Shown: in pieces, positions 3,201-64,000 of the stretch
Numbering within the stretch: position 1 is the stretch's first letter
Layout: each line of letters starts with the position of its first letter
Assembly: GCF_036711975.1 (NCBI RefSeq)
Contig: NC_091970.1
Span: forward strand, 1,123,501-1,187,500
DNA: 64,000 bases
Direction: 5' to 3'
Source of the DNA: Onthophagus taurus
Taxonomy: Eukaryota > Arthropoda > Insecta > Coleoptera > Scarabaeidae
Notes under the pieces: model-generated
Database searches by the model: none
Told to the model about the DNA's origin: nothing
The model's input: only the letters and a program-made list of their open reading frames with translations
Made by a program: the position numbers and the translations under genes

Positions 3201-6200
3201 TACTGGCAGAAAATAAGTATTACTAAAGGAAGACTAGATACTGCTGGCAGAAAATAGATATTGATGGAGGGTTAAATACTGCTTGCAGAGAACCAGATAT
3301 TGATGGCAGAGACTCCAATTACATCTGCAACGTTAAATAATGTATAACTAAGGTTGAAATTTTAAAACATCATATCTCAAGAACTAATTGAGATATAAAG
3401 ATGAAATAACCAGCATTTTAAAGCAAATTTAATTTAGTTTCAGCATCTAAAAAATTAATTCTAATACTGTATGAACCTCGTTTTCAGCAATTGTTAAATA
3501 CAACTTTGCGTGGTAAATAATAAATATCTAAGGTTAAGAGAAAGAAGAAGAAAGTGAAATTAAAAATGTTGAAAGTTTTAAAATAATAATTGAAGTTAGA
3601 TTATATTAAATTTAAGTATTAAATTGTTTAAAAATTTTGATTAATTACCTCGATGCATAATTCTAGAGATCTTAACAATTCCAAAACTCCAATAGCATCA
3701 CATTGATTATAACTGGCTTGAAAATCTTCAGCAGTATAAACTCCAGTAACCCGAGCGTGTAAAATAAATTGATTTGAAAGTAATTCGCCGATTAATTGAG
3801 TTCCTAACCAAGAAACGTTTAAAACGACCAAATCGTTTACGCAAAATACTTCACCCATGGCGTGCAATTGTTGGAGTAATTCGTGAATGTGATCGTCCGA
3901 CGCCAAGATATTAACGTGAAGACGTAGATATTCCGAAAAAATCGGGCGGGTTAAAACAGGAAATTGTTCGTGGTCTTTTTGAAGGGTTGTTAAATAATTT
4001 AAAGTTGATTCGAGTAATCCAGTCCAAGTTCCAATTGTTTGCTAAAAAAACAATTAATAAAATATTAAAAAAAAAAATTTAATATAAAATAATTAAGATT
4101 TTTGATTTAAAATTTGATTACGATTAACTTTACACACGAAATCAAAATAAAACGATTATGTACAGGAAAAAAATTGTGAATCACAACACATTTTGTGTGC
4201 TAAATGAATAAATTTTTTGAGTTTATTTAAAAATTGCTCTTAACACACAAGATACCTTCGTTTTAGACGTAATCAAATCGTAAGAGTTCCCTTTCCTAAC
4301 GCAAGATTTTACATAAACACCCTGTAAACGTTTATTTATTTCTTAGTTTTACAAATTAATTTTTTGAGTCAAATTACCTGGATACAATCTTGCTTAATTG
4401 ACGTCAAAATTGATTTTAATTGTTTAAAAGCGTGCGAAGCGGGAACATTGCAGTCCATAACAATGGGGTTTACGATCAAATTGGGGGCGTGTGGTACCAT
4501 TTTTCGTAGTGTTTCAACCGTTTTTTGGGCATCCGTACTAATCCACTCACCGTGTTGGTTTTTTATGGCGCGGGTGGTGTCTACGTGGGTTGCTATTAAA
4601 ATTATTTTACCATATTCAGCTAAAAATATAACTAAGTTATATAAAATTATTATTGCTTAATTAATTAACTTGTTGGAACATCCGCAGGTTGTCTCGCTAA
4701 AATAAAATTTAGCCAAAAACAAACTTGTTGGACTTGAACGGCGGGGGAGTCTTCCAAGTTAAAAAGAATCGCCGTTAAAGTATACGGGGAGGGCCATAAA
4801 AAATGGTGGTACGTGGGGAGAAAGTTTTCTTGGCCTGAAAAATCCCACACGCTTACATCGCCCACATTCGAAATTTCCACCTAAAATAAAGAAAAATTAA
4901 TAATTTAGGAAAATTCCATGTGAAATGACCCAAAAAACACGTTAAAAATAAAAAAGTGTAGAATATACCGAAAAATCACATTAAAGTTTCGAAGTTTTTT
5001 CATCGAAATTCTTAATCTCCATTAAATTTCCTTTAATATGAACCCAAACACGACTAAATTATCACTAAAAACAACCAAAATGTTAAAATAAAATTATTTT
5101 GACAGTTGACGTTTGACATTTTAGGTTAATTTTAATAAAAATGTATTTTTAAAGATAAATAAGTCGTGTTTGGGTTCATTTTAAAGGATTTTTCACCCTT
5201 TATGCAGTGGTAACGATGAAAAATAAAAAAAAAACGAAAAATGAGTACTTCCGGTTTTAAATATTTAAAGTTTTTTCATCGAAATTCTTAATCTCCATTA
5301 AATTTCCTTTAATACAAACCCAAACACGACTAAATTCTCACCAAAAATAACCAAAATGTTAAAATAAAATTATTTTGACAGATGACGTTTGACATTTTAG
5401 GTTAATTTTAATAAAAATTTATTTTTAAAGATAAATAGGATGTGTATGAGCTTAATTTTAAAGGATTTTTTACCTTTAAAGCATTGGTAACGATGAAAAA
5501 CAAAAAAAAACGAAAAATGAGTACTTCCGGTTTTAAAAATTTAAAGTTTTTTTCCTCGAAATTCTTAATCTCCATTAAATTTCCTTTAATACAAACCCAA
5601 ACACGACTAAATTATCACCAAAAACAACCGAAATGTTAAAATAAAATTATTTTGACAGTTGACGTTTGACATTTTAGGTTAATTTTAATAAAAATGTATT
5701 TTTAAAGATAAATAAGTCGTGTTTGGGTTCATTTTAAAGGATTTTTCACCCTTTATGCATTGGTAACGATGAAAAATAAAAAAAAAACGAAAAATGAGTA
5801 CTTCCGGTTTTAAATATTTAAAGTTTTTTCATCGAAATTCTTAATCTCCATTAAATTTCCTTTAATACAAACCCGAACACGACCAAATTCTCACCAAAAA
5901 TAACCAAAATGTTAAAATAAAATTATTTTGACAGTTGACGTTTGACGTTTTAGGTTAATTTTAATAAAAATGTATTTTTAAGGATAAATAAGTCGTGTTT
6001 GGGTTCATTTTAAAGAATTTTTCACCCTTTATGCAGTGGTAACGATGAAAAATAAAAAAAAAACGAAAAATGAGTACTTCCGGTTTTAAAAATTTAAAGT
6101 TTTTTTCATCGAAATTCTTAATCTCCATTAAATTTCCTTTAATACGAACCCAAACACGACTAAATTATCACCAAAAACAAGCAAAATGATAAAATAAAAT

Positions 6201-8083
6201 TATTTTGACAGTTGACGTTTGACGTTTTAGGTTAATTTTAATAAAAATGTATTTTTAAAAATAAATAAGTCGTGTTTGAGCTCATTTTAAAGGATTTTTT
6301 ACCCTTAATGTATTGGTAACGATGAAAACAAAAAAAATTAAGATAAATGACGTTTCACCTGTCATTATTGACATTGCAACGTATGTAGCTTTTTCATTTT
6401 TCCACCAAAACTAACATTCTTGGGTATCAATTCGAATAAATCCAACCTCCTCAATCCAAATTTAGTACTAAAAATTATAATTAATTACTAAAAAATCAAG
6501 ATGGCTTCCAATATGGATTTTTTTTTGAAAATGTGTTGTTGGGTGTATCATTTTGAATAATTTAAGTGTGATCTTTTCGAATTTCACACTTATTTTTAAT
6601 AAACTAAAAATCTGAAAACATTCATTAATTGTAACCACACTAATATATATAGATATCACAAGAAGTGACGTCACGTCGAAACTTTAGTGATTTTTCGGTA
6701 AGTATTACACAAAAAAATCGTTCGAGGTTGCAAAAGAATTTCGCTGGCTAAAATTTATAAATTAATATAAAACGACCAAATAAAGTAATGACATTTAGAA
6801 TTTGACGTTTCAATGTTATGTCTATTAATTAAACGTCACATTATAAATTTTCATTTAAACATGAAATGAAATGATAAAACAATTAAATGTTGATTGTTTT
6901 GTCAACTTTTAATAGGTTTTCGAAAAAATGATTATTTATTTACATTTTGCATATTAATCCCATTTGTGGATTGATAATTACAGGGTGACTCAAAAGTTAA
7001 CGAATTTTGGCGTGAAGTTATCCCCATTTCGATTTGGGAGTTAATTGGAGATGATGGTCGAGCTAAAATTAAAAAATTTTAAACTCAATTTAAAAAAAAT
7101 GTTTTACATTTACATTTATTGCTTTGCAACGAACTCGATCGTCGAAACAACGAACTAAAAAGTCCCGCATTTAACGATTTAACCAACGAAGTTTTTCCAA
7201 CTCCGCAATGTCCCAAAATGCGAAGCGAAATCCTCAAAGCCGGTTTCGAAGTTGGTACTAATTGTCGCGCAAAAACATCTCTTTGTCCCGTCGCTCTCAA
7301 TTTATCTAACAACTCTGCTATATCATTATGACCATATTTTAAAGCGGTTATATCGGCGCGGATATTATCAGAATTTTTTACTTCAATATTACAACCAGCT
7401 GTACATAAACATCTAAAAGGATTTTAATATATTTTTATTAAAACCCAAATAATTTAAAAAGAAATTCTTCTAAACTAAATTAAAACCAAAAAAAAAATGT
7501 AGGTTATGTCTAAATGAATAAAAAAAAAAGATTTCTACCTTACAACGTGAATATGTCCATTTCTGGCTGCTAGATGCAAGGGGAAAAGCCCCCCAGTTGT
7601 TGTAACCTCTACACTACAACCGAGAGCACACAGAGTTTGAACTACCTCTAATAAACCTAACGCGCAAGCTATATGAATCGGATAATCCCCATGCTAGAAA
7701 GAGAAATTACAGAAGAAACAACAATAAGATAATTCATGCCCCAAAACACCCTCCTTAATACTATAAACTAAAAAAAAAAACTAATAATTTCTTTGTTTTA
7801 GTTTTCTTACAGAGTCTTTTAACTCGAAATCAGCCCCTGCTTGTAACAAATAAAGGGCTATTGTTGTGTACTTTTTTCGTAACGATAAATGTAGCGCCGG
7901 ATCGGGGCCTACATCCAATTCGACCCCTTCCTCAACTAAATATCTAAAAATTTATTTATTTACACGATTTATAATGATTATAATTTTTATTATTACATAC
8001 CTAACCTCTAAAAGACACCCCTCAAGGGCGGCTATTTGTAATTTTGTGTAATCATCAAGTGAATACGACGATCTTCTACTCAT
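283..8083 (-). CDS. DAPK1-like ankyrin-Roc-COR protein, kinase-less, 3' partial
   Basis: Nine exons with consistent phases: 8001-8083, 7811-7943, 7539-7693, 7114 (or 7108)-7412, 6944-7062, 4670-4880, 4378-4619, 3649-4041 and 283-465; the gene continues past base 1. The start MSRRSSYSL leads straight into about five ankyrin repeats (residues 10-165). A Roc GTPase domain follows, with P-loop GHCGVGKTS (191-199), G3 WDFSGQ and G4 ATHVD, then a COR-like region (LLQQLHAMGEV). Order and many residues match recalled human DAPK1, for example QSTNGINMQN before VGDVSVWDFSG. DAPK1 couples GTP-binding Roc-COR to a death-associated kinase, but no kinase domain lies upstream: the divergent neighbour begins 900 bp away. 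A missed distant kinase exon cannot be excluded. Arrays A and B sit in introns 8 and 5. Confidence 0.85.
446..2682. repeat. Tandem array A, about 254 bp unit, about 9 copies
   Basis: The word AAAACGGATT recurs at about 505, 701, 947, 1201 and 1455 and onward, giving spacings of 196, 246, 254 and 254. Each unit contains a TTAGGTTAGGTTA stretch, GAAAAGTGAGGTTAAG and a CATCACACTAAAAA segment. The array occupies most of the 3' half of the last in-window intron of the DAPK-like gene and overlaps the exon at 283-465 by its last few bases. It does not obviously carry the box shared by arrays B-F. Confidence 0.9.
2690..3320. repeat. Degenerate 21 bp-type minisatellite (GACTAAATATTGATGGCAGA)
   Basis: From about 2945 the sequence is a loose head-to-tail series of roughly 20-40 bp words such as GACTAAATATTGATGGCAGA and GGCTAGATACTGCTAGCAGA. 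They belong to the same family as the 27.5-31.3 kb array. The first 250 bases (2690-2940) hold no gene I recognise, only two imperfect copies of a GAAATTGGAAAATCAGG-type word. All of this is intron of the DAPK-like gene. Confidence 0.65.
4985..6345. repeat. Tandem array B, about 276 bp unit, about 5 copies
   Basis: CGAAATTCTTAATCTCC recurs at about 5003, 5279, 5556, 5832 and 6109, giving a period of 276-277. Each unit has the box ACCCAAACACGACTAAAT and, about 150 bp on, its inverted form AAGTCGTGTTTGGGTTC, so one unit can fold into a stem-loop. ACTTCCGGTTT occurs once per unit. The array lies in intron 5 of the DAPK-like gene. The rest of that intron (6345-6940) shows nothing I recognise. Confidence 0.92.
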
Positions 8084-8195
8084 TATTCTATTTTTGATTA
8101 ATAATTTATTCGAAAAAACGCATTTATATATCAATATTTTTTATAATTTCGATATTTTCAATAATTCACCACCAATAAGGGAAAAAATGAATCAG

Positions 8196-15480: not shown

Positions 15481-15700
15481 TTCTTGTAATAATGAAAAAC
15501 TTATCGGTAAAACACTAGTAAAAGTTTTTTTATGGTGTGATATGGTGATTCTGCAGATTTAATTAGTTAACTTGTCTGTTTTAAATGTTTAAGGTAAAAT
15601 AGCCTTCAAAATGGAGTAAGGAGCCCCAACCAAAAGTTTTTTGTCTTAAAGAAACGTTTTAAAGGAATCCCGAAGATTTTATTTAAATAAAGACTCAACA

Positions 15701-18700
15701 ATGAATTCCGTTAATGAAACAGCTTTGAAAGAAACCACAAATGACTCAAGAAATAAGTCAACAAAGAACTCAAAATTAGATCCAAAACAATCAACCGAAG
15801 ATCCCCTTAAAGAATACTTCAACAGTATTGCAAATAGTGAAACTTTACGTTTAAACTTTCAATCGTTAATCTCAGTACTTTCAAGCAGTTTAAGAATTGA
15901 TTTGACAAATGTGTCACGGCCTATGAAAAATGTGCTTGCAGAATCGTTGTGTTATTTTATAAAAAATTGGTCTGGATGGAAAGAATATAAAAATTTGGTG
16001 TTAAAGGATGAATGTTTTTCGAAATTCAAAGATTATCTCCGGGCAAAGTTAACCTATATTGTTGAAAATGAGGGTGAATTTTGTAAAAGAAGCAATAAAC
16101 CAAAACCAACAATGGTTGCTGCTGAAACACAAACGGATTTGCCACCAAAAAATAATAAACCAGAAGCTCCTTTTAGTTTAACTATTTCTGGACCACCACA
16201 TTTTTTAAATAATATGGTTTTTGTTGAAATAAACAGTAAGTTTAAACATTAAGTTATTTTCAGATTTAAAAGTGAATTAATTTTTATTTTTAGATAACTT
16301 TTTGCTAAAACAGCATTCAGAGAAACCATGGAAGCTGGCACCCTCAACAACATTTTTTCTAAACCATCCTTATGTTAAAATTAGTATCAATTTACCCAAA
16401 ATTCTATTTTCACGCTCTAATATCCATGATTATAAAAGTTATTTAACAGATGATGGGGATATGGCATCTTGTCTCAAAACAGACTTTATTAGTGAAGTTG
16501 TAAAAACTTCTAATGTAACACCTAAAGTGTTTTCATTCAATTTCATCTCTGCTTATTTTGAACAATTAATATCCATCATGGCGAAATATAACGTTAAGAA
16601 TTGCTTATTGATTCAAAGCATCATGAATGAGTATTTAAGGGATATTAAGGACTGTAATATAAATGGATGCACGATGGCATCACCTTTTATGGTAACTTTT
16701 AATATTGGGAAAAATGTTTATGTTCGTAATAAAAAAACTGTTGCTTGTGCTAGCAAAAGGTAAGTTAATAATCAATTATACCGGGAATTTCATATAATTT
16801 GCAATATACCGGATGTTTCATAATCCAAAAATTTGAACAAAGTCCTGCGCATATATTATGAAACACTCTGTATATGAATGCAATAACCATAGTTATGAAA
16901 ATATTGTGCGCTTGCACTCTACCACATAAAATGCGACATAGCTTAATAGTACAGGAATTGAGTAGTTTTGTAACGAAAAAGTTTTGCTTGAAAATAGTGA
17001 CGTCCTTATAAGAAAAAAATGTCAAAACTTAAGGTTAGTATTAATATTTAAAAATTATGTTGCTAACTTCATTGTTGCCAACTTCAGGTTTAGTACTTTT
17101 TATTCTCATTTGAATGGTTATTTAATAAGGATTACGAATATATCAAGATTAAATTTGACATAACACCATGAAGTTGAGATGTCAACCTCAATTTTGACGT
17201 ATTCGTAATTGTCAATACGAATCCTTTGAAATGAGTACCAACACGACATATTTCATTTCAATTAATAAAGTTACGGTCAATTTCCGGTTTGAAATGTCAA
17301 TGTCAATTTAGACATATTCGTAATTTTAACAAAATGTCTTAAAATAAATACAATTTTTCATAAAAGCCGAAAATATAAAAAAAAAATGTCAAAAATTAAA
17401 GTTGGTATTAATATTTAAAAATTATGTTGCTAACTTCATTGTTGCCAACTTCAGGTTTAATACTTTTATTGTTATTTAAATAGTTATTTAATAAGGATTA
17501 CGAATACTTCAAAATTAATATTGACACATCACCATGAAGTTGTTAACCTTTGAACCTTTGGTTTGAAATGTCAACCTCAATTTTGACGTATATGTAATCC
17601 TCATTAAAAATCTTTTGAAATGAGTACCAACACGACATATTTTGTTTCAATATTAATAAAGTTACGGTCAATTTTCTGTTTGAAATGTCAACGTCAATTT
17701 AGACATTCGTAATTTTAACAAAATGTCTTAAAATAAATTTAATTTTTCATAAAAACCGAAAATATAAAAAAAAATGTCAAAAATTAAGGTTGGTATTACT
17801 ATTTAAAAATTATGTTGCTAACTTCATTGTTGCCAACTTCAGGTTTAATATTTTTATTGTTATTTAAATAGTTATTTAATAAGGATTACGAATACTTCAA
17901 AATTAATATTGACACATCACCATGAAGTTGTTAACCTTTGAACCTTTGGTTTGAAATGTCAACCTCAATTTTGACGTATATGTAATCCTCATTAAAAATC
18001 TTTTGAAATGAGTACCAACACGACATATTTAATTTCAATATTAATGAAGTTATGATCAATTTCCGGTTTGAAATGTCAACGTCAATTTTGACATATTCGT
18101 AATTTTATTAAAATGTCTTAAAATAAATATAATTTTTCATAGAAAACGAAAATACAAGTAAAAATCTCAAAAATTAAGGTTGGTATTAATATTTAAAAAT
18201 TATGTTGCTAACTTCATTGTTGTCAACTTTACGTTTAATATTTTTTTATTCTAACTTTTTTGTTTTTCGAGATAAATGCGTCATGTTTGGGCTCATTTGA
18301 AAGATTATTTAATAAGGATTACGAATACATCAATATTAAAGTTGACATTAACACCATGAAGTTGTCAACTTTGAAATGTCAACCTCAATTTTGACGTATT
18401 TGTAATCGTCACTGAGAATTCTTTGAAATGAGTACCAACACGACATATTTAATTTCAATATTAATGAAGTTATGATCAATTTCCGGTTTGAAATGTCAAC
18501 GTCAATTTTGACATATTCGTAATTTTATTAAAATGTCTTAAAATAAATATAATTTTTCATAGAAAACGAAAATACAAGAAAAAATCTCAAAAATTAAGGT
18601 TGGTATTAATATTTAAAAATTATGTTGCTAACTTCATTGTTGTCAACTTTACGTTTAATATTTTTTATTCTAACTTTTTTGTTTTTCGAGATAAATGCGT

Positions 18701-19513
18701 CATGTTTGGGCTCATTTGAAAGATTATTTAATAAGGATTACGAATACATCGATATTAAAGTTGACATTAACACCATGAAGTTGTCAACTTTGAAATGTCA
18801 ACCTCAATTTTAACGTATTTGTAATCGTCACTAAGAATTCTTTGAAATGAGTACCAACACGACATATTTAATTTCAATATTAATAAAGTTACGGTCAATT
18901 TCCGGTTTGAAATGTCAATGTCAATTTAGACATATTCGTAATTTTAACAAAATGTCTTTTAAAATAAATACAATTTTTCATAAAAGCCGAAAATATAAGA
19001 AAAAATGTCAAAAATTATCAGAAAACCATTTTATGTGGGATAAAATAAGTAGGTACTTCCTGGTTTCTATGGAAATATATTGTTGTATATTCTACATCTT
19101 AAATGAAATTCACTGTGTAGACGTAAAATTTAACAAACAACAATTTTATTTTTAGCAAAAACAAAAATGTAATACATTTTTGCCAAATCCTAACTCCAAA
19201 AGTCGCATTTTCACTCGAAGAATTTAACGTTGCAGAAAGCGGAAGCACAAATACTTTTATGGATTTAAATTCAATGGACAAATTACTTAAAATGGGGTCT
19301 AAACTATATTTACAGGTTCTTAATAATTGCGTTACGTTTAGTTGTACGTTGTGCAATAAAGTATATCAAGGAGAGCATTGCTATTTTGAATGTATGGACC
19401 ATTTCCGAATTGTACATAAAGGCGAACAAGAAGTTGTATGTTTTAAATGTCGCAACAAGTTTGATGTACCCAATTTGGCATCGACAAGATGGTATCATAA
19501 TTGCCAAACATAA
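15701..19513 (+). CDS. Unrecognised two-zinc-finger protein, paralogue 1
   Basis: Three exons, 15701-16235, 16294-16759 and 19156-19513; they encode 452 residues. The N-terminal half is conserved with the gene at 25121: AESLCYFIKNWSGW versus SECLCFYLQIWNGW, and FLNHPYVKISINLP versus FLHYPYVNVEINLP. The C-terminus has two zinc-finger-like motifs: CTLCNKVY with DHFRIVH, then CFKCRNKF with WYHNC. The first is C2H2-like and the second ends His-x-Cys. I do not recognise the family; a nuclear or nucleic-acid-binding role is only a guess from the fingers. Intron 2 (2.4 kb) is filled by array C, whereas the same intron in paralogue 2 is 53 bp. ATG 15701 opens the long frame. Confidence 0.75.
17015..19012. 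repeat. Tandem array C, 370-420 bp unit, about 5 copies
   Basis: GGTATTAATATTTAAAAATT (one copy with a mismatch) recurs at about 17035, 17404, 17790, 18180 and 18600. Units carry the shared box (AAATGAGTACCAACACGAC), TTCCGG and GTCAACCTCAATTTTGACGT. The array begins and ends at nearly the same point of the monomer, close to a whole number of units. The later copies have an extra segment with TTTTTGTTTTTCGAGATAAATG. It lies inside the intron that precedes the zinc-finger exon of paralogue 1. Confidence 0.9.
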
Positions 19514-19858: not shown

Positions 19859-22800
19859 ATGGCTCGTTTCGGGTCATTTTTTAACGACATGGAGGATGAT
19901 CCTCTGTTTGGGTGCGTAATTTAAACCAAAACTCATTTCTTAATAAAATACTCATTCTTAACACATCTTTTCTTCCGCCATTTAATAAATTTCAATTTTA
20001 TTTTTTTTATGTAATATAACTTCTATTCTCTTTTAACCACCAGTTCCCATATGCGCACAATGCGTCAAATGAACACCATGATGAACTCGCTTTTTACGGA
20101 TCCTTTTGGAATAATGAACAATGATTTTGGGGATCGTATGTTAACTCACCGTGCTCCTGCACCGTCTATGGCCCTCTCCCCGTTCGCGATGCCAAACATG
20201 AATCGTTTATTAAGCGGTTCTTTAGATAATTTGGGGAATAATTCGCATTGCTACAGTTCGAGTACCGTTGTAAGCATGGTTTCGGGACCTGACGGTCGTC
20301 CCCAAGTGTACAAAGCAAGTTCAAGCACTCGTATCGCACCTGGCGGCATAAAAGAAACTCAAAATACCGTTTCTGACTCAAGAACGGGAACCAAAAAAAT
20401 GGCTATTGGTCATCATATCGGAGATAGGGCTCATATTATCGAACGCGAACAAAATGTGCACTCTGGAGATCAAGAGGAGCGCCAAGAATTTATTAATTTG
20501 GATGAGGACGATGCGGAGGGTTTTAATCATGAATGGGAGACTAAAGCTAAGAGTAGAAATGAAATTGGGGGTGTTTCGAGGTATAGAAGGCATCATGGGG
20601 TGCATCATTCTGGAGTTCCAGCTATTACAGCCGGTCCAAGGTGATTTTTTTGATTTATTAAAGTTATTTTTTCTTGCCTCTTTATTTTTATTTATGGTAG
20701 AAGTTTCTTTTTGTATATTTTTGATGTTTGCATGGTTTAGTAGTCGGCGACATAGAACGGGGTCGAGTTTGGTACCTGCCAGGCGAAGTATTAGACCATC
20801 TTTGAATGTTTCACATCAAAGCACTTCAAGGTACGGTTAATAAACGCACTTTTTTTGTTTGTTTTGTTGTTTGGGTGGCTTCTTGTAATATTTTGAGATC
20901 AAATTTTGTTAATATTTTGGTGTATGTCTTTTAGGTCCTTGAAAAGATATTGTTAAAGTATGGTGTAGTTTGTTTTTTGTAGTGAATGTAAGTAATTGGA
21001 TTGCTTTTTTGTTTGATACTGCTTTTGTTGTTAATGTTTTATGATGATTTTCGTTTTTATTTGTTTTTGAATTCGACATCACTTTACTAAGCGACAAATA
21101 AATAATGTTGAGAAAAACGGGATTTTCGTTTTCATCTCTCTAAAAATGTGATTTCTCAATATTTCTTTTTGTTTTGTTAAAAAAGTTACTAATTTACAAA
21201 ATTGAAGTTTAAAAAGTTGTAAAATGGAATTAAGGACGAAGTGTTACAAGTTTACAGATTAATTTCAGTTATAAAACTTTTATTATATGATAACTAACTT
21301 CAGGTTAAAAATGTCAACCTCAATTTTGACATATTTGTAATCTTCATTAGAAATCCTTTAAAATGAGTACAAACACGACATATTTATCTTCAATATTAAT
21401 GAAGTTATGGTCAACTTCCGGTTAAGAATGTCAATGTCATTTTGACATATTCTTAATTTTTATACAATGTCTTAAAATTTGTCACAGAAACAAAAATATT
21501 AAAAAAAAAATCATTAATTAAGGTTGGTATTAATATTTAAAAATTAAATTGCTACTTTCATTGTTGCTAACTTCAGGTTTAATGTTTTTTATTCTAACTT
21601 TTTTGTTTTTTGAGATAAGTGCGTCTTGTTTGGACTCATTTTAAAGGTTTTTTATAATAAAGAATACATCATGAAAGAACACCATGAAGTTGTCCATGTC
21701 TATTATATGATAACTAACTTCAAGTTTAAAATGTCAACCTCAATTTTGATATATTTGTAATATTCATTAAAAATCCTTTAAAATGAGTACAAACACGACA
21801 TATTTATCTCCAATATTAATGAAGTTATGGTCAACTTCCGGTTAAGAATGTCAACGTCAATTTTGACATATTCGTGAAAAATCCTTTAAAATGAGTCCAA
21901 ACAAGATACGTTAAATTCTAATATTACTCGAGATATAAGCAACTTCCGATTTGAAATGTCAATGTCATTTTGACATATTCTTAATTTTTATAAAATTTCT
22001 TAAAATTTGTCACAGAGACAAAAATATAATAAAAAAAAATCAAAAATTAAGGTTGGTATTAATATTTAAAAATTAAATTCCTACCTTCATTGTTGCTAAC
22101 TTCGTGTTTAATGTTTTTTATTCTAACTTTTTTGTTTTTTGAGATAAGTGCGTCTTGTTTGGACTCATTTTAAAGGTTTTTTATAATAAAGAATACATCA
22201 TGAAAGAACACCATGAAGTTGTCCATTTGTCTATTATATGATAACTATCTTCAGGTTTAAAATGTCAACCTCAATTTTGACATATTTGTAATCTTCATTA
22301 AAAATCCTTTAAAATGAGTACAAACACGACATATTTATCTTCAATATTAATGAAGTTATGGCCAACTTCCGGTTAAGAATGTCAATGTCATTTTGACATA
22401 TTCTTAATTTTTATAAAATGTCTTAAAATTTGTCACAGAAACAAAAATATAATAAAAAAAAATCAAAAATTAAGGTTGGTATTAATATTTAAAAATTAAA
22501 TTGCTACCTTCATTGTTGCTAACTTCGGGTTTAATGTTTTTTATTCTAACTTTTTTGTTTTTTGAGATAAGTGCGTCTTGTTTGGACTCATTTTAAAGGT
22601 TTTTTATAATAAAGAATACATCATGAAAGAACACCGTGAAGTTGTCCATGTCTATTATATGATAACTAACTTCAAGTTTAAAATGTCAACCTCAATTTTG
22701 ACATATTTGTAATCTTCATTAAGAATTCTTTAAAATGAGTACAAACACTACATATTTATCTCCAATATTAATGAAGTTATGGTCAACTTCCGGTTAAGAA

Positions 22801-24662: not shown

Positions 24663-24991
24663 ATCCATCGATTTTCGTTTCAATATTAAAAAAATATGAT
24701 TATAGTATTGAATTGGGTTAAAATGGTTCAAAAATGTGTACCGCGTCATCTACTTTTTTTTGGTTGTTCAAAATCAAAGAGTTATTACTATTTAAAAGAA
24801 TTAAAATATTATTTTTTAATTTAAACGTAATTTTATATCGATTTTAGGTTATCCCAAACAAGGGACATTAAAAACTCATTTAATTTAGATAATATTATAA
24901 TTTAACTTAATAATTTTAATAAAACGCTCAGATAGGTCTTGTAAAATCCTGTTTGTTCTCTCCTCTATAATGTATTATTAAGTTCTAGATC

Positions 24992-24997
24992 AATAAA
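24992..24997 (+). promoter_or_regulatory. Poly(A) signal downstream of Mlf exon 4
   Basis: AATAAA 330 bp after the stop at 24660-24662 and about 120 bp before the next gene's start codon. Confidence 0.5.
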
Positions 24998-25041
24998 GTA
25001 CAATTTATTGAGCTTTTTCGTTTTTATCAAAACTTTAATTC

Positions 25042-25054
25042 AAGCGCCATCTAT
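25042..25054 (-). promoter_or_regulatory. CTCF-like motif upstream of zinc-finger paralogue 2
   Basis: AAGCGCCATCTAT, 70 bp before the start codon at 25121. Reads ATAGATGGCGCTT on the other strand. Confidence 0.4.
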
Positions 25055-25120
25055 ATTCAATTTGACAGTTTAAATTTGACATTGACAGTTGTTAAAAACT
25101 TAACATTATTAATAAAAAGA

Positions 25121-44696: not shown

Positions 44697-44699
44697 AAA

Positions 44700-47311: not shown

Positions 47312-50300
47312 TCAAACAAAACCAATAAAAATGGCTTTGTACAAAGTTTGAAAATCAAGGAGGTATTTGATAATTTTTGGATATAATACCTGATCGGCAC
47401 GGCCCTTACTCTTTCCTTGGACCTTTTTCGGTTTGACCGTCTCTTGGGGACCCTCTCCGCCTCCAGAAGCGATTCCAAGCCTCAAATGTATCGGCATTTT
47501 TCCATCTTTCATCACAAATAAATACAAACTTTAATAAAATCTCATAAATAGCAAAATGAATTAATAATAACGAGGAAAAAAGGGCTCCAACAACTCTATG
47601 TTACCTGAACATTCTTCGACGAGATCCGATCGCAAAAATCTTACTTTTCTTTCGTTACATCTTAACCGGACGTTTCTAACCTTTACAAATGTAACGCTTG
47701 CGATCTTCGCGGTACGTTTAACAGCCGCGTATTCTACTCATTACCAAAATCAAGGAGATGAAAAAGGAAATTGGAAAAAGGGGTTTTAAAAAAAAAAAAT
47801 TTAATACCTTTAGGTGCTGTTTCATTTTCCGATTTAATTTTTTTCTGCTTTTTAAAGACAGCACCTTGCAGGGCGTTTTGTAATAATCTCGATGGCACAT
47901 TCTCGACGGTTGGTAATCTACTTTGACGTTCAGCCCTTTTCCTACTTAATTGAGCACGTAAATCTCCAGCTAAAACAAAAAATTTTTTTTTAATTTTAAT
48001 TCTAACTTATTAGACTTTGAGTTCGAAGTTACATCTGCGCCACCAGGAAAATAAAAGAATACAAAAGGAAGTATGAACCAAGTGATAAATGAGGTTAAAA
48101 TAAGCTGGAAAGGATAGAAAAAGGAAAGAGGATTAAGAGCAAATCCTGAGAGTTTTAATTTTATTATTATATTCGTAATCTTCATAAAATAACCTTTAAA
48201 ATGAGTCCAAACTCGACATATTTAACTTTAATATTAACGGAGATACAATCACTTCCGGTTTGAAACGTCAACGTCAGTTTTGACATATTTATCATCTTCA
48301 TTAAAAACCCTTTAAAATGAGTCCAAACAAGACGCACTTATCTCAAAAAACAAAAAAGTTAGAATAAAAAACATTTAACCCGAAGTTAGCAACAATGAAG
48401 ATTTTTAAATATTAATACCAACCTTAATTTTTGATTTTTTTTTATTATATTTTTGTTTCTGTGACAAATTTTAAGACATTTTATAAAAATTAAGAATATA
48501 TCAAAATGACATTGACATTCTTAACCGGAAGTTGACCATAACTTCATTAATATTGAAGATAAATATGTCGTGTTTGTACTCATTTTAAAGGATTTTTAAT
48601 GAAGATTACAAATATGTCAAAATTGAGGTTGACATTTTAAACTTGAAGTTAGTTATCATATAATAAACATGGACAACTTCATGGTGTTTTTTCATGATGT
48701 ATTCTTTATTATAAAAAACCTTTAAAATGAGTCCAAACAAGACGCACTTATCTCAAAAAACAAAAAAATTAGAATAAAAAACATTTAACCCGAAGTTAGC
48801 AACAATGAAGATAGCAATTTAATTTTTAAATATTAATACCAACCTTAATTTTTGATTTTTTTTTATTATATTTTTGTTTCTGTGACAAATTTTAAGACAT
48901 TATATAAAAATTAAGAATATGTCAAAATGACATTGACATTCTTAACCGGAAGTTGACCATAACTTCATTAATATTGGAGATAAATATGTCGTGTTTGTAC
49001 TCATTTTAAAGGATTTTTAATGAATATTACAAATATGTCAAAATTGAGGTTGACATTTTAAACTTGAAGTTAGTTATCATATAATAGACATGGACAACTT
49101 CATGGTGTTCTTTCATGATGTATTCTTTATTATAAAAAACCTTTAAAATAAGTCCAAACAAGACGCACTTATCTCAAAAAACAAAAAAATTAGAATAAAA
49201 AACATTAAACCCGAAGTTAGCAACTATGAAGATTTTTAAATATTAATACCAACCTTAATTTTTGATTTTTTTTTATTATATTTTTGTTTCTGTGACAAAT
49301 TTTAAAACATTTTATAAAAATTAAGAAACTGTCAAAATGACATTGACATTTCAAATCGGAAGTTGCTTATATCTCGAGTAATAGTGGAATTAAACGTATC
49401 ATGTTTGGACTCATTTTAAAGGATTTTCACGAATATGTCAAAATTGACGTTGACATTCTTAACCGGAAGTTGACCATAACTTCATTAATATTGGAGATAA
49501 ATATGTCGTGTTTGTACTCATTTTAAAGGATTTTTAATGAAGATTACAAATATGTCAAAATTGAGGTTGACATTTTAAACTTGAAGTTAGTTATCATATA
49601 ATAGACATGGACAACTTCACGGTGTTCTTTCATGATGTATTCTTTATTATAAAAAACCTTTAAAATGAGTCCAAACAAGACGCACTTATCTCAAAAAACA
49701 AAAAAGTTAGAATAAAAAACATTTAACCCGAAGTTAGCAACAATGAAGGTAGCAATTTAATTTTTAAATATTAATACCAACCTTAATTATTGATTTTTTT
49801 TAATTATATTTTTGTTTGTGACAAATTTTAAGACATTTTATAAAAATTAAGAAACTGTCAAAATGACATTGACATTTCAAATCGGAAGTTGCTTATATCT
49901 CGAGTAATATTGGAATTAAACGTATCATGTTTGGACTCATTTTAAAGGATTTTTCACGAATATGTCAAAATTGACGTTGACATTCTTAACCGGAAGTTGA
50001 CCATAACTTCATTAATATTGATGATAAATGTGTCGTGTTTGTACTCATTTTAAAGGATTTTTAATGAAGATTACAAATATGTCAAAATTGAGGTTGACAT
50101 TTTAAACTTGAAGTTAGTTATCATATAATAGACATGGACAACTTCATGGTGTTCTTTCATGATGTATTCTTTATTATAAAAAACCTTTAAAATGAGTCCA
50201 AACAAGACGCACTTATTTCAAAAAACAAAAAAATTAGAATAAAAAACATTTAACCCGAAGTTAGCAACAATGAAGGTAGCAATTTAATTTTTAAATATTA

Positions 50301-53300
50301 ATACCAACCTTAATTTTTGATTTTTTTTATTATATTTTTGTTTCTGTGACAAATTTTAAGACATTGTATAAAAATTAAGAATATGTCAAAATGACATTGA
50401 CATTCTTAACCGGAAGTTGACCATAACTTCATTAATATTGAAGATATATATGTCGTGTTTGTACTCATTTTAAAGGATTTTTAATGAATATTACAAATAT
50501 ATCAAAATTGACGTTGACGTTTCAAACCGGAAGTGATTGTATCTCCGTTAATATTAAAGTTAAATATGTCGAGTTTGGACTCATTTTAAAGGGTTTTTTA
50601 TGAAGATGACGAATATAATAATAAAATTAAAGCTGACATTAACTGAAAGTTTTTTTTGCGACTAAACCCGAATGTTAAGTAATGAAGAGTATGATGCTGA
50701 AGATGAATTACCACTCTCAACTTTGAAAAAAATACACTCTTTCACATTTTTCACACACCTTTCATTTTAAATCAATGTTAATTTGTCCAAATGACTTCTA
50801 AAGCAACTACAATTCTAAAGACATAAGGAAAGAGTTAAATATTAAGGCTTTGTACGATTTTATAGATAAGAGGCAGACATCTACAGGATACACAACGAAA
50901 GAAAAGATGTAAAAAAGAGTACTCTTTAAATATATTACTTACAATCACATTTTTGATTACTAAAACCATTTTCGTCATCTTCCAAATCAACTTTAGCATT
51001 TAACTCATTATTTTCCTCCTTTTTAGCAACTTCGACTTTCCGCGAAGGCCTCTCCTTTTCATTCTTAACATCATATTTACTCGTCGTTTCATATTTCGAC
51101 GGATTGCGAATCTTAATTTCAATCTTTTTACTTTCAATGGTCGGCACCAATTTCTCCTTTCTCTCCGTTTTAACTTTTCGCGTCGTCAAACGTTCTTTGT
51201 GGTCGCCCTTAACTTTATGATTATCGCGATTTCGTAACGACGTTCTCGTTCGTTCTAAAGGAATCGATTTCGGTTTTGAATCTAACAATTTACTGAAAGG
51301 GACGACGCGAACGTTCGATTTTTTCTCGTTGTTGATGGAATTTTTGAATCTTCCTTCGTTTTCCGAGTCGGTTTCTTCGTCCGAAAAGATATCGTCGACT
51401 TTTGGGTTTAATATGTCTTCGAAATTTTCTTCTAGATCGTCTTCGATGGTGTCGTGGGGTTCTGGGGAATCTTCTTCTTTTGGAAGGATGTTTTCGGTGG
51501 GATTTTCAGCGACCTTCTCATCTTCTATTTTGATGTTTTCCGTTTTAGGGGGCTCCATTTTGATGATGTCATCTTCTTGTTTTGGTCTTAACCTGATTAT
51601 TCCTTCTTTATTTTTAATTCCGTTCGTTTCAAATTTTCTTTTACGCGCTTCTAAAACGGGATCAAGCTTTTCTTCAAGTTTTTCTTCAATTTTTTGTATT
51701 TTATTTGTTACAGCTGGGGATAAACTTCTACTTCGTTTCTTTTTATTACCCAATCTTTCTTTAACTAACAAAAACATCATTATTAATAATTATTTATTTA
51801 ACAAAATCAAACATTTTTTACCTAATTTCTTTTTTAAGTTTTCTGGACTCCTTCTTTCAGCACTTCTCCTCCTAAGAGGTGATCTTTTCCTAATCTCCTT
51901 CACTGGGGTTATCCTCCTTTCATCTTTCAAAGGCGTCCTCGACCTCGACTTAGATTTAGATCGATGATACCTCGGGGAAGGACTCCTCGAATAACTCCTC
52001 CGCGGACTTTTCTTCCTACGTTCGATCGCATCCCTATTTTGAAGCACAAAAGCGGCACTTCTCGGCGATAACGGGGCCCTAGCGATCGTTAACACATCAT
52101 CAGTGTTTAATTTTAATGGTGAAAGGGGCCTCTCATAAAACATTCGGTGATGTAAATCAGGAGGGACGTTTTGTTGTTGCGGAATTTGGAGGTTAGGATG
52201 GATTTGTGGGGTAATAATCGGCGCTGGGGGATATTGGAGGGGGTTATATAAATGGGGAGGATTATATGGAGGTGGAACCTGATAATTTAAAGGACCAGGT
52301 GTGTACTGACTATGATTATTGTAAGGTTGACGCGGTTTTCGAATTTTTTGATCAAATTTTTGAAAAGGTCTCCGATTTCTTTGTAATGGAGGAGATCGTT
52401 TTTGTGGAAATAAATCTTCAACAACAGGAGGAACTAAATTAGGTTTAGTTTCAATTTCCTTCGTAATTTTAACTTCCTTTTCAATCTCAATTTTGACATC
52501 TTCACTTGTAAACGTTTCTTGGTTCACTTCCAACTTTACAATCTCAGGCACTTCATCTTTAACTTCTACTTCCAACCGTTTTTTGCGCTTCTTAATCTTC
52601 TTTTTAACCTCATCGCTTTTCGTTTGCGAATTCCCTTGGATTTCATTCTCTAATTCTTGCATTAAAGCCTCTAAACTATCCGCACGTTCCAATTTACCGG
52701 GAGATTCATTTTCCGTTTCAGAATCAGTTCGGTAATCGGTTTCACTCTCCGATTTATCCGAGTTATCGTATCGATCAAATTTACTCGATGACTCCGTTTT
52801 TTCATCCCCCTTTTTTACGTTGCTGTAACGATCTTGAGGTAAAATTAATTTAGTGAACGAATTTGTTTTAACATCTTGATTTCTTTGAGGGTTATCATCA
52901 ATCGTTGGAATTGAAATAAGATTAGTGTTTTTAATCCTAAATTGACCCTAAATTAACAAAAAAAAATTTTTTTTTAGGTTATGTCATTGTCATGTCAATT
53001 AAAAGATGGCGCCACATCACATCAATAAATAACTTTTTATTTTTCTTTAAATTATTCGAAATATCTTTAATTTCATCACCTCTAACGTTATACTTTGATT
53101 AAAATAAGATTGGTGTTTTTAATCCTAATTAACCCTAATTAACAAAAAAAAATTAGGTTGTCTTTATACATTGCCATGTCAACCGAAAGATGGCGCTATA
53201 TCACAACAATAAATAATTTATTATTTTATTTATTATTCTTTAAATTATTCGAAAAATCTTGAATTCCACGAACTCTAACATAATACTTACATTTCTGTTC

Positions 53301-57637: not shown

Positions 57638-57656
57638 TTCTTTTTTTCTATTAGGA

Positions 57657-58289: not shown

Positions 58290-61200
58290 AACCAACATCG
58301 TATTCGTAATCTACATTAAATTCCCTTTAAAATGAGCCCAAACTCGGACGAGTTATCTTAAAAACCAACAAACACCACCAACTTCCGGTTGTCACTTTTT
58401 GAGGTTATGTCAAAATTAAACGTGGAATATCTCCGGTGTTTTTTAAGATAATTGGGTCGTGTTTAGACTCGATTTAAAGGATTTTTAATTTCCTACGTGA
58501 TTATGCACTAAGATAAAACCTAACCTCACTTTGTAAACGCCAAATAAATTTTATTCGATATTATCCGCCATTTTGTCTTTATTTTAACAGAATTTAATTA
58601 AACCAACATCGTATTCGTTATCTATATTAAATTCTCTTTAAAACGAGCCCAAACTCGGTCGAGTTATCTTAAAAGACAACAAACTTCCGATTGTCACTTT
58701 TTTGAGGTTATGTCAAAATTAAATGTTGGATATCTCGGGTGTTTTTTAAGACAATTGGGTCGTGTTTGGACTCGATTTAAAGGATTTGTAATTCCCCACC
58801 CGATTATGAATAAAAGAAAGAACCTAACCTCACTTTGTAAACGTCAAATTGATATTGTTTGATATTTTTCGCCATCTTGATTAATAATTTTAATTAAATA
58901 ATAATAAAATTCTTTATTTTTAGATCTAAAAATACCCGGCGAATTTAATTTCGTTGAAATCGAATCATTTTTCTTAAATCATCCTTCATTTTGTTTTTAT
59001 TACTAGCGAATTTAATTAATCTAACATCGTATTCGTAATCTACATTAAATTCCCTTTAAAACGAGCCCAAACTCGGACGAGTTATCTTAAAAACCAACAA
59101 ACACCACCAACTTCCGGTTGTCACTTTTTTGAGGTTATGTCAAAATTAAATGTGGAATATCTCCGGTGTTTTTTAAGATAATTGGGTCGTGTTTGGACTC
59201 GATTTAAAGGATTTTTAATTTCCTACGTGATTATATACAAAGATAAAACCTAACCTCACTTTGTAAACGTCAAATTAATTGTATTCGATATTATCCGCCA
59301 TTTTGTCTTTATTTTAACAGAATTTAATTAAACCAACATCGTATTCGTTATCTATATTAAATTCTCTTTAAAACGAGCCTAAACTCGGTCGAGTTATCTT
59401 AAAAGACAACAAACTTCCGATTGTCACCTTTTTGAGGTTATGTCAAAATTAAATGTTGGATACCTCGGGTGTTTTTTAAGACAATTGGGTCGTGTTTGGA
59501 CTCGATTTAAAGGATTTGTAATTCCCCACCCGATTATGAATAAAAAAGAACCTAACCTCACTTTGTAAACGTCAAATTGATATTTTTCGCCATCTTGATT
59601 AATAATTTTAATTAAATAATAATAAAATTCTTTATTTTTAGATCTAAAAATACCCGGCGAATTTAATTTCGTTGAAATCGAATCATTTTTCTTAAATCAT
59701 CCTTCATTTTGTTTTTATTACTAGCGAATTTGATTAATCTAACATCGTATTCGTAATCTACATTAAATTCCCTTTAAAATGAGCCCAAACTCGGACGAGT
59801 TATCTTAAAAACCAACAAACACCACCAACTTCCGGTTGTCACTTTTTTGAGGTTATGTCAAAATTAAATGTGGAATATCTCCGGTGTTTTTTAAGATAAT
59901 TTAGTCGTGTTTGGACTTAAATTAAAGGATTTTTAATTTCCCACGTGATTATGCACTAAGATAAAACCTAAGATCACTTTGTAAACGTCAAATTAATTTT
60001 ATTCGATATTATCCGCCATTTTGTTTTCATTTTAACAGAATTTAATTAAACCAACATCGTATTCGTTATCTATATTAAATTCTCTTTAAAACGAGCCCAA
60101 ACTCGGTCGAGTTATCTTAAAAGACAACAAACTTCCGATTGTCACTTTTTTGAGGTTATGTCAAAATTAAATGTTGGATATCTCGGGTGTTTTTTAAGAC
60201 AATTGGGTCGTGTTTGGACTCGATTTAAAGGATTTGTAATTCCCTACCCGATTATGAATAAAAAAAAGAACCTAACCTCACTTTGTAAACGTCAAATTGA
60301 TATTGTTTGATATTTTTCGCCATCTTGATTAATAACTTTAATTAAATAATAATAAAATTCTTTATTTTTAGATCTAAAAATGCCCGGCGAATATAATTTC
60401 GTTGAAATCGAATCATTTTTCTTAAATCATCCTTCATTTTGTTTTTATTAGTAGCGAATTTGATTAATCTAACATCGTATTCGTAATCTACATTAAATTC
60501 CCTTTAAAATGAGCCCAAACTCGGACGAATTATCTTAAAAACCAACAAACACCACCAACTTCCGGTTGTCACTTTTTTGAGGTTATGTCAAAATTAAATG
60601 TGGAATATCTCCGGTGTTTTTTAAGATAATTGGGTCGTGTTTGGACTTGATTTAAAGGATTTTTAATTTCCTACGTGATTATGTACAAAGATAAAACCTA
60701 ACCTCACTTTGTAAACGTCAAATTAATTTTATTCGATACTATCCGCCATTTTGTCTTTATTTTAACAGAATTTAATTAAACCAACATCGTATTCGTTATC
60801 TATATTAAATTCTCTTTAAAACGAGCCCAAACTCGGTCGAGTTATCTTAAAAGACAACAAACTTCCGATTGTCACCTTTTTGAGGTTATGTCAAAATGAA
60901 ATGTTGGATATCTCGGGTGTTTTTTAAGACAATTGGGTCGTGTTTGGACTCGATTTAAAGGATTTTTAATTCCCCACCCGATTATGAATTAAAAAAAAGA
61001 ACCTAACCTCACTTTGTAAACGTCAAATTGATATTCTTCGCCATCTTGATTAATAATTTTAATTAAATAATAATAAAATTCTTTATTTTTAGATCTAAAA
61101 ATACGCGGCGAATTTAATTTCGTTGAAATCGAATCATTTTTCTTAAATCATCCTTCATTTTGTTTTTATTACTAGCGAATTTGATTAATCTAACATCGTA

Positions 61201-64000
61201 TTCGTAATCTACATTAAATTCCCTTTAAAATGAGCCCAAACTCGGACGAGTTATCTTAAAAACCAACAAACACCACCAACTTCCGGTTGTCACTTTTTTG
61301 AGGTTATGTCAAAATTAAATGTGGAATATCTCCGGTGTTTTTTAAGATAATTTAGTCGTGTTTGGACTTAAATTAAAGGATTTTTAATTTCCCACGTGAT
61401 TATGCACTAAGATAAAACCTAAGATCACTTTGTAAACGTCAAATTAATTTTATTCGATATTATCCGCCATTTTGTTTTTATTTTAACAGAATTTAATTAA
61501 ACCAACATCGTATTCGTTATCTATATTAAATTCTCTTTAAAACGAGCCCAAACTCGGTCGAGTTATCTTAAAAGACAACAAACTTCCGATTGTCACTTTT
61601 TTGAGGTTATGTCAAAATTAAATGTTGGATATCTCGGGTGTTTTTTAAGACAATTGGGTCGTGTTTGGACTCGATTTAAAGGATTTTTAATTCCCCACCC
61701 GATTATGAATTAAAAAAAGAACCTAACCTCACTTTGTAAACGTCAAATTGATATTGTTTGATATTTTTCGCCATCTTGATTAATAATTTTAATTAAATAA
61801 TAATAAAATTCTTTATTTTTAGATCTAAAAATACCCGGCGAATTTGATTTCGTTGAAATCGAATCATTTTTCTTAAATCATCCTTCATTTTGTTTTTATT
61901 ACTAGCGAATTTGATTAATCTAACATCGTATTCGTAATCTACATTAAATTCCCTTTAAAATGAGCCCAAACTCGGACGAGTTATCTTAAAAACCAACAAA
62001 CACCACCAACTTCCGGTTGTCACTTTTTTGAGGTTATGTCAAAATTAAATGTGGAATATCTCCGGTGTTTTTTAAGATAATTGGGTCGTGTTTGGACTTG
62101 ATTTAAAGGATTTTTAATTTCCTACGTGATTATGTACAAAGATAAAACCTAACCTCACTTTGTAAACGTCAAATTAATTGTATTCGATATTATCCGCAAT
62201 TTTGTCTTTAACAGAATTTAATTAAACCAACATCGTATTCGTTATCTATATTAAATTCTCTTTAAAACGAGCCCAAACTCGGTCGAGTTATCTTAAAAGA
62301 CAACAAACTTCCGATTGTCACCTTTTTGAGGTTATGTCAAAATGAAATGTTGGATATCTCGGGTGTTTTTTAAGACAATTGGGTCGTGTTTGGACTCGAT
62401 TTAAAGGATTTTTAATTCCCCACCCGATTATGAATTAAAAAAAAGAACCTAACCTCACTTTGTAAACGTCAAATTGATATTCTTCGCCATCTTGATTAAT
62501 AATTTTAATTAAATAATAATAAAATTCTTTATTTTTAGATCTAAAAATACGCGGCGAATTTAATTTCGTTGAAATCGAATCATTTTTCTTAAATCATCCT
62601 TCATTTTGTTTTTATTACTAGCGAATTTGATTAATCTAACATCGTATTCGTAATCTACATTAAATTCCCTTTAAAATGAGCCCAAACTCGGACGAGTTAT
62701 CTTAAAAACCAACAAACACCACCAACTTCCGGTTGTCACTTTTTTGAGGTTATGTCAAAATTAAATGTGGAATATCTCCGGTGTTTTTTAAGATAATTTA
62801 GTCGTGTTTGGACTTAAATTAAAGGATTTTTAATTTCCCACGTGATTATGCACTAAGATAAAACCTAAGATCACTTTGTAAACGTCAAATTAATTTTATT
62901 CGATATTATCCGCCATTTTGTTTTTATTTTAACAGAATTTAATTAAACCAACATCGTATTCGTTATCTATATTAAATTCTCTTTAAAACGAGCCCAAACT
63001 CGGTCGAGTTATCTTAAAAGACAACAAACTTCCGATTGTCACTTTTTTGAGGTTATGTCAAAATTAAATGTTGGATATCTCGGGTGTTTTTTAAGACAAT
63101 TGGGTCGTGTTTGGACTCGATTTAAAGGATTTTTAATTCCCCACCCGATTATGAATTAAAAAAAGAACCTAACCTCACTTTGTAAACGTCAAATTGATAT
63201 TGTTTGATATTTTTCGCCATCTTGATTAATAATTTTAATTAAATAATAATAAAATTCTTTATTTTTAGATCTAAAAATACCCGGCGAATTTGATTTCGTT
63301 GAAATCGAATCATTTTTCTTAAATCATCCTTCATTTTGTTTTTATTACTAGCGAATTTGATTAATCTAACATCGTATTCGTAATCTACATTAAATTCCCT
63401 TTAAAATGAGCCCAAACTCGGACGAGTTATCTTAAAAACCAACAAACACCACCAACTTCCGGTTGTCACTTTTTTGAGGTTATGTCAAAATTAAATGTGG
63501 AATATCTCCGGTGTTTTTTAAGATAATTGGGTCGTGTTTGGACTTGATTTAAAGGATTTTTAATTTCCTACGTGATTATGTACAAAGATAAAACCTAACC
63601 TCACTTTGTAAACGTCAAATTAATTGTATTCGATATTATCCGCAATTTTGTCTTTAACAGAATTTAATTAAACCAACATCGTATTCGTTATCTATATTAA
63701 ATTCTCTTTAAAACGAGCCCAAACTCGGTCGAGTTATCTTAAAAGACAACAAACTTCCGATTGTCACTTTTTTGAGGTTATGTCAAAATTAAATGTTGGA
63801 TATCTCGGGTGTTTTTTAAGACAATTGGGTCGTGTTTGGACTCGATTTAAAGGATTTTTAATTCCCCACCCGATTATGAATAAAAAAAAAGAACCTAACC
63901 TCACTTTGTAAACGTCAAATTGATATTTTTCGCCATCTTGATTAATAATTTTAATTAAATAATAATAAAATTCTTTATTTTTAGATCGAAAAATACCCGG
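58290..64000. repeat. Array F: 725 bp dimeric satellite with 1.45 kb higher-order repeat
   Basis: CATCGTATTCGTAATCTACA (full units) alternates with CATCGTATTCGTTATCTATA (half units). Together about 310 + 415 bp make a 725 bp dimer (starts near 59030, 59743, 60473, 61196, 61926, 62640 and 63370). Alternate dimers differ in the same places, for example ACGCGGCGAATTTAATTTCG against ACCCGGCGAATTTGATTTCG, giving a unit of about 1.45 kb. Units hold the box (AAATGAGCCCAAACTCGG), its inverse (GGGTCGTGTTTGGACT), ACTTCCGGTTG and CCGCCATTTTG. The array runs off the window. Confidence 0.93.

What the first reader, a model, noticed from the sequence alone, without database searches (positions are those of the whole stretch)
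4985..64000. Arrays with different monomers share one box, inverted within the unit in B, D, E and F
Arrays B, C, D, E and F have units of 276, about 400, 420/528, 420/528 and 725 bp with mostly different sequence. All contain a word close to TTTAAAATGAG-YCCAAAC-NCGAC. In B, D, E and F the same word also lies in reverse complement about 100-200 bp away in the unit; in C the inverse is partial. ACTTCCGG sits nearby in each. Retention of one short box while the rest diverged suggests that it is the acting part: an element end, a protein-binding site (as the CENP-B box is in alphoid DNA), or the stem of a transcribed hairpin. I know of no named element with this box.
Basis: partly seen in the sequence, partly recalled or inferred. 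Interest (0 to 1): 0.78.

Follow-up and report, generated by a model that had tools for sequence, protein, structure and literature searches.

The report
Shared inverted box in repeat arrays
Three families of tandem repeats lying among ordinary genes of an animal (probably an insect) carry the same short inverted DNA box, most likely the ends of a small mobile element whose inside has multiplied; this is a known kind of repeat, in a family I could not find described.

Summary
The box is real. CCTTTAAAATGAGTCCAAACACGAC (<=7 of 25 mismatches) occurs 79 times against 0.38 expected, always in arrays B-F or one solitary copy, D2. Between-family identity is sharply peaked: 0.95 at CCTTT, 0.98 at CAAAC, 0.80 at TATCT, near chance (0.29) outside about -35..+55.

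Corrections: C, D and E are one family, so there are three (B, C/D/E, F). The box belongs to a ~108-117 bp module with ACTTCCGG about halfway; C has no exact ACTTCCGG. Facing boxes lie 124-280 bp apart.

Four of five complete loci (B, D, D2, E; not C) start with a forward and end with a reverse box. E ends in a 126-bp terminal inverted repeat (122/126). D, D2 and E share a right-end word seen nowhere else in the window.

Best reading: end boxes of a non-autonomous, foldback-like transposon that expanded internally into satellite-like arrays, as described for Tetris. Arm changes are mostly one-sided, against a selected RNA hairpin. Within arrays the box is not significantly less variable than the rest, so a site acting there now is unsupported. 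No target-site duplication, transposase (20 ORFs scanned) or outside relative was found. New member of a known kind.

The parts
4985..6337 (+). Array B, period 276-277, five + boxes and four - boxes (a fifth - box decayed at 5419-5494); facing boxes 133 apart
   Evidence: edges approximate
17010..19017 (+). Array C, periods 388-420, same family as D/E; two full inverse boxes for five forward ones; lies in an inferred 2396-bp intron
   Evidence: left edge judged by eye
21280..24142 (+). Array D, periods ~421 with extra 108/117-bp direct module copies; 15 boxes
27026..27411 (+). D2, solitary copy of the D unit: one box pair (27060+, 27320-), 260 apart
48151..50676 (-). Array E, inverted relative to D; 14 boxes; bounded by its own inverted terminal modules
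48151..48276 (+). Left 126-bp terminal inverted repeat of E (122/126 to the right one)
   Evidence: its 18-bp signature occurs once per strand in the window, at the two ends
50509..50634 (-). Right 126-bp terminal inverted repeat of E
58324..64000 (+). Array F (boxed part; runs off the window), units 716-730 bp, two box pairs per unit (spacing 132-133 and 124), two-unit higher-order period ~1.45 kb
21355..21379 (+). Example box, CCTTTAAAATGAGTACAAACACGAC
21414..21421 (+). Example ACTTCCGG at +59 from the box start, same orientation
21623..21647 (-). Inverse box of the same unit, CCTTTAAAATGAGTCCAAACAAGAC
24111..24142 (+). Right-end stretch of D (GAAAGTTTTTTT...CCGAATGTT); GAAAGTTTTTTT also at 27400 (D2) and 50645 (E), nowhere else in the window on either strand
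16760..19155 (+). Inferred intron holding array C; the matching intron of the related neighbouring gene (26077-26129) is 53 bp; both in phase 2
   Evidence: splice letters, lengths and phases; protein similarity on both sides of it; no RNA data

Best explanation
The box is the conserved core of the terminal/subterminal inverted repeats of a non-autonomous, foldback-like TIR DNA transposon family. Shown: a ~50-bp core is conserved in sequence between three repeat families; it sits in facing inverted pairs; 4 of 5 complete loci begin and end with box starts pointing outward; one array (E) has a 126-bp TIR; one solitary unit exists. Inferred: a transposase encoded elsewhere in the genome recognised the core, so it stayed constant while interiors diverged or were replaced; copies landed between genes and in an intron; then unequal crossing-over, slippage or replication of hairpins formed by the inverted arms multiplied the interior head to tail, giving satellite-like arrays and, in F, a dimeric higher-order repeat. 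The box in present arrays is then mostly a relic of mobility, not a working chromosomal site.
For: Peaked between-family conservation, near 0.29 outside about -35..+55. B and F1 keep 71% and 78% identical 45-bp arms and the same 133-bp spacing while their 68-bp interiors are unrelated (18/68 matches, shuffle p 0.70; 4 of 5 B and 7 of 8 F1 copies used). Over 53 columns and 5 groups: 19 invariant, 1 changed on both arms, 33 with arms differing in at least one group. Edges: + first and - last in 4 of 5 complete loci. E TIR 122/126, with a signature found once per strand, at the two ends, and a right-end word only at the right edges of D, D2, E. D and D2 also start at the same base of the unit, with flanks unlike the internal copies. 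Direct repeats of the 107-117 bp module inside D and E, as in foldback-type TIRs. C lies in an inferred 2396-bp intron that is 53 bp in the related gene. Precedent: Tetris (PMC4079207; abstract and 'Characterization of Tetris' section read).
Against: No target-site duplication above chance at the edges of B, D, D2, E (longest shared words 5-6 bp, P 0.76-0.99); C has a 12-bp shared word (P 0.01), but it is part of the unit itself. No transposase family at threshold in the 20 ORFs scanned with Pfam, out of 93 in the filtered list (one sub-threshold Tnp_DNA_bind match, E 0.038, in the ORF next to the THAP domain). C begins and ends with + boxes. The outer ends could not be fixed to the base, and E's left end lacks the last ~20-40 bp that the right ends of D, D2 and E share. 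B and F show no direct module copies like those of D and E. The genome is not held, so copy number and dispersal are unknown.
Confidence: 0.55

Rival explanations
1. Satellite diversification without transposition: a ~108-117 bp ancestral monomer (box, ACTTCCGG half-way) was duplicated in direct and inverted orientation by recombination and gave rise to complex units of 276, ~420 and ~725 bp; the box is just the slowest-changing part.
For: Direct module copies at 107-117 bp steps in D and E; ACTTCCGG in the nearest box's orientation at fixed offsets in all 26 array copies. Tribolium madens satellites derive from a ~110-bp element, with dyad symmetry inside the larger monomer (PMC13081366, abstract and passages).
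Against: Does not by itself explain + first/- last edges (4 of 5 loci), E's terminal signature, the right-end word shared by D, D2 and E, or a solitary unit between genes.
Confidence: 0.28
2. A host DNA-binding protein uses the box in the arrays today (CENP-B-like, boundary or promoter factor; ACTTCCGG as an ETS-type site, the latter recalled).
For: Sequence-level, split conservation (CCTTT, CAAAC, TATCT); within F and D/D2/E the box is numerically less variable than the rest; a satellite box conserved between otherwise diverged monomers is known from Meloidogyne (PMC3694981).
Against: The within-array difference is not significant and is reversed in B (P 0.36, 0.39, 0.88); two inverse boxes have decayed; the arrays lie among genes. 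Power is low.
Confidence: 0.11
3. The inverted boxes are the stem of a transcribed hairpin giving small RNAs.
For: Box-to-box segments fold far better than shuffles on both strands (8 segments, z -3.8 to -9.9), the two spacers tested do not (z -0.5 to 0.3).
Against: Any inverted repeat folds so. One column of 53 changes on both arms; one-arm changes outnumber both-arm 61 to 13. Rfam gives one match in these arrays at E <= 1, below its gathering score (MIR2599 in F, E 0.24).
Confidence: 0.05

Closest known systems
Tetris / DAIBAM foldback elements of Drosophila virilis (PMC4079207; abstract and one section read)
   Same: Non-autonomous, inverted ends with internal tandem repeats (~220 bp) that grow into satellite-like arrays; a related element shares the ends
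   Different: Tetris copies show 8-10 bp target-site duplications and TIRs up to 1735 bp; no duplication found here, other sequence and repeat lengths
Galileo (P superfamily) of Drosophila (PMC3573991, abstract only)
   Same: Long internally repetitive TIRs, exchange of sequence between copies
   Different: Galileo has a known transposase; none found here, superfamily not assignable
MITEs with tandem arrays, e.g. Xstir and miDNA4 of Xenopus (review PMC12628747, passages)
   Same: Inverted-repeat elements whose interior is multiplied into arrays of variable copy number
   Different: Sequence relation not tested
Tribolium madens TmSat1/TmSat2 (PMC13081366, abstract and passages)
   Same: Two satellites from one ~110-bp element, dyad symmetry inside the larger monomer
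   Different: Those fill multi-megabase regions, likely (peri)centromeric; here arrays among genes with element-like edges
Meloidogyne satellites with Box 1 (PMC3694981, abstract and one section)
   Same: A short box kept in satellites otherwise only 32-64% alike; proposed role in transposition-related rearrangement
   Different: Box 1 is a 17-bp CENP-B-like motif; here a longer split box in facing inverted pairs
Cg_HINE Helentron elements of oyster (PMC7492417, abstract)
   Same: Satellite-like central repeats dispersed inside non-autonomous elements
   Different: Here there is a 126-bp TIR; Helentron-type ends were not tested

Membership tests
Non-autonomous TIR (MITE/foldback-like) DNA transposon | Terminal inverted repeats | tested here: met
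   E: 122 of 126 bp; D, D2 and B have inverted ends that are more diverged or shorter (99, 49 and 43 aligned columns); not met by C
Non-autonomous TIR (MITE/foldback-like) DNA transposon | Target-site duplication | tested here: inconclusive
   None above chance in B, D, D2, E; C's 12-bp word is part of its unit; outer ends not fixed to the base
Non-autonomous TIR (MITE/foldback-like) DNA transposon | Dispersed copies with constant ends | tested here: inconclusive
   One solitary copy and several separate arrays in 64 kb; genome not held
Non-autonomous TIR (MITE/foldback-like) DNA transposon | No transposase of its own, mobilised by a related autonomous copy | tested here: inconclusive
   No Pfam match in the one array ORF scanned (59427-59696); an autonomous copy could not be sought
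Foldback elements (Tetris, Galileo) | Inverted arms containing direct tandem repeats | tested here: met
   Direct module copies at 107-117 bp steps in D and E; not in B or F
CENP-B-box type centromeric satellite | Box under constraint within the arrays | tested here: inconclusive
   Not significantly less variable than the rest in F, D/D2/E or B; low power
CENP-B-box type centromeric satellite | Centromeric location of long arrays | not testable with these tools
   Here the arrays lie among genes; F runs off the window
Selected RNA hairpin | Compensatory changes in the stem | tested here: not met
   1 of 53 columns changed on both arms
Known Rfam RNA (e.g. hammerhead) | Match to a family model | tested here: not met
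   9 matches at E <= 1 in the window, all below gathering, no hammerhead, one in these arrays

The most novel reading that the evidence does not exclude
The split box is itself a cis signal for array formation: a protein (transposase or domesticated transposase) that recognises facing box pairs cuts or re-replicates whatever lies between them, so that unrelated interiors are repeatedly turned into tandem arrays with the same box-to-box spacing (133 bp in both B and F1, interiors unrelated).
Probability: 0.1. Interest if true: 0.7.

Novelty: new member of a known kind. Interest (0 to 1): 0.36.

Why it matters
It shows within 64 kb several forms that are usually seen apart: a solitary inverted-repeat unit, arrays with element-like ends, an array with decayed boxes and a higher-order array, all with the same end box. 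It is a usable case for how small transposons become satellite DNA near genes. If the box itself drove amplification, the origin of satellites would become testable.

Tried and rejected
Five monomer types: rejected, since C, D and E are one family. CENP-B-like site under present constraint: no support. Hairpin RNA as the selected trait: not supported. Hammerhead or other known RNA: none at gathering score. tRNA-derived repeat: ARAGORN found no tRNA, run with the bacterial code.

Outside relatives: pattern scans of IMG/VR gave 0; GTDB genome contigs gave 0 and then 1 with a looser pattern. That one, L001, lies just upstream of a 335-aa bacterial ORF in a Chitinophagaceae MAG contig of 35-50% G+C, and was rejected as chance. 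blastn of D2 (window 27040-27400) against phages and plasmids gave no match. These collections hold bacteria, archaea, viruses and plasmids, so their silence says little about an animal repeat.

Literature: two searches for box strings printed in papers gave 1 and 16 papers; by titles and abstract starts none concerns such a repeat, and I opened none of them. That the family is undescribed rests on these open-access searches only; Repbase and Dfam were not available.

TSD search at the edges: nothing above chance except a unit-internal word in C.
Full report
Setting. The window is AT-rich (25-42% G+C per 2-kb step) and holds ordinary animal-type genes: Pfam finds MutS domains (31371-39163, which I read as MSH6 from recall), a chloride channel, Mlf1IP, a THAP domain and a sub-threshold COR-A match. 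I take it for an insect from gene content and repeat style; this is recall and inference, no call identifies the species, and no genome is held for it.

The box. With the seed CCTTTAAAATGAGTCCAAACACGAC, 79 sites have at most 7 of 25 mismatches (0.38 expected; 100 Markov simulations). Their order along the loci is B +-++-+-+-, C +++-+-+, D +-++-+-+-++-++-, D2 +-, E ++-+-+--+--+--, F 16 times +-. Of 73 neighbouring pairs 34 face each other, 29 point away and 10 point the same way. A module HMM also hits these places, plus two decayed ones, and nothing outside the arrays at E < 0.05.

Three families, not five. Self-comparison shows C, D and E to be one family: C-D 70-79% over up to 1456 bp, D-E 88-96%. 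B, C/D/E and F resemble each other only over 40-86 bp at 72-90% around the box (at most the eight best hits per pair were viewed).

Where conservation lies. Anchored on the box, with 13 module consensus sequences from 77 of the 79 boxes (those at 27060 and 48309 were left out) and between-family pairs only, identity in 5-base bins is 0.95 at CCTTT, 0.98 at CAAAC, 0.80 at TATCT (+30), 0.63-0.64 at +35 to +44 and at -10 to -1. It is 0.29-0.50 from -35 to -11, 0.40 and 0.36 at +45 and +50, and 0.23-0.38 further out on both sides, against 0.29 from base composition. So the profile is not flat. B and F1 are the clearest case: 45-bp arms 71% and 78% identical, both pairs 133 bp apart, yet the 68 bp between the arms are unrelated (18 of 68 matches, shuffle p 0.70; gapped p 0.31; consensus of 4 of 5 B and 7 of 8 F1 copies).

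The second word. ACTTCCGG occurs 27 times, 26 in arrays. All 26 have the orientation of the nearest box, at +57 to +59, -58 to -60, or -48/-49. With direct module copies 107-117 bp apart in D and E, I read the two words as two anchors of one ancestral ~108-117 bp module. C has no exact copy; 4 of its 5 units read TTTCCGG.

Element-like edges. Of five loci with both edges in the window, B, D, D2 and E begin with a + and end with a - box; C does not. E's outer 126 bp are inverted copies of each other (48151-48276 and 50634-50509, 122 of 126), with an 18-bp signature found once on each strand of the window, at those ends. GAAAGTTTTTTT is found only at 24111, 27400 and 50645, the right edges of D, D2 and E. 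D and D2 start at the same base of the unit (TATTATATGATAACTA at 21281 and 27027), with upstream flanks unlike each other and unlike the nine internal copies. C lies in an inferred 2396-bp intron (16760-19155). The matching intron of the related neighbouring gene is 53 bp (26077-26129), and both are in phase 2. The two genes are similar on both sides of that intron (BLASTP E 6e-7 and 4e-17, and 6e-14 for an earlier part). There is no RNA support. No target-site duplication stands out.

What the box is not shown to do. Within arrays, box columns are not significantly less variable than the rest: F 0.0225 against 0.0301 (8 copies, the last cut by the window end, P 0.36), D/D2/E 0.059 against 0.091 (12 copies, P 0.39), B 0.092 against 0.045 (5 copies, P 0.88). 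In F and D/D2/E the box is numerically quieter, in B noisier; power is low, and constraint in present arrays is neither shown nor excluded. Box-to-box segments fold strongly on both strands (8 segments, z -3.8 to -9.9, 60 shuffles each), the two spacers do not. However, among 53 columns in 5 groups 19 are invariant, one differs by a change on both arms and 33 have differing arms in at least one group; one-arm changes number 61, both-arm 13, of which 5 still pair. In that count the C/D/E family is represented by C and by D/D2; E pairs were left out as near-identical to D, and the B unit with the decayed inverse box was left out. The sequence, rather than the pairing, was kept.

Array growth. 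Of seven complete F units, units 3, 5, 7 are 99.2-100% alike, units 2, 4, 6 97.9-98.9%, and the two sets 96.9-97.5% to each other, giving a two-unit higher-order repeat; unit 1 stands apart at about 94%. This is the usual mark of local amplification (general knowledge).

Conclusion. The evidence fits best the ends of a non-autonomous inverted-repeat (foldback-like) element whose interior expanded into arrays, as Tetris did. Satellite diversification from a ~110-bp monomer, as in Tribolium madens, is the main rival, and the two can be stages of one history. The element's superfamily is open. The kind is known; the family was not found in the searches named under Tried and rejected.

Noticed in passing
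35922-37376 and 39712-42091: 132-bp tandem repeats containing a long near-palindrome (sub-gathering miRNA-like Rfam matches), one array between the MutS_I and MutS_V ORFs and one after them.
   Followed up: no
27607-30979: Array of a ~21-bp unit with a 165-bp higher-order period (and 494), A-skewed; a 21-bp repeat at 31240-31300 looks like its reverse complement.
   Followed up: no
655-2677: Array A, 255-bp unit with TTAGGTTAGGTTA; no box found by HMM.
   Followed up: partly
15650-19510 and 24989-26460: Two neighbouring related genes without a Pfam match in the parts scanned apart from weak zinc-finger hits at the end of the second (16281-16760 not scanned); array C sits in an inferred intron of the first, D and D2 flank the second.
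   Followed up: partly
43733-44443: THAP-domain ORF followed by a second ORF with weak coiled-coil-type matches, upstream of array E; THAP domains also occur in P-type transposases (recalled), so it is a conceivable but untested box-binding protein.
   Followed up: partly
58500-63900: F units also carry CCGCCATTTTG/CGCCATCTTG and AACCTAACCTCA words that resemble promoter motifs (recalled, not tested).
   Followed up: no
17010-19017: Array C starts and ends near the same point of its unit (AAAAAATGTCAA at 17014 and 19000), i.e. about five whole units, as might follow insertion of a circle; not tested further.
   Followed up: partly
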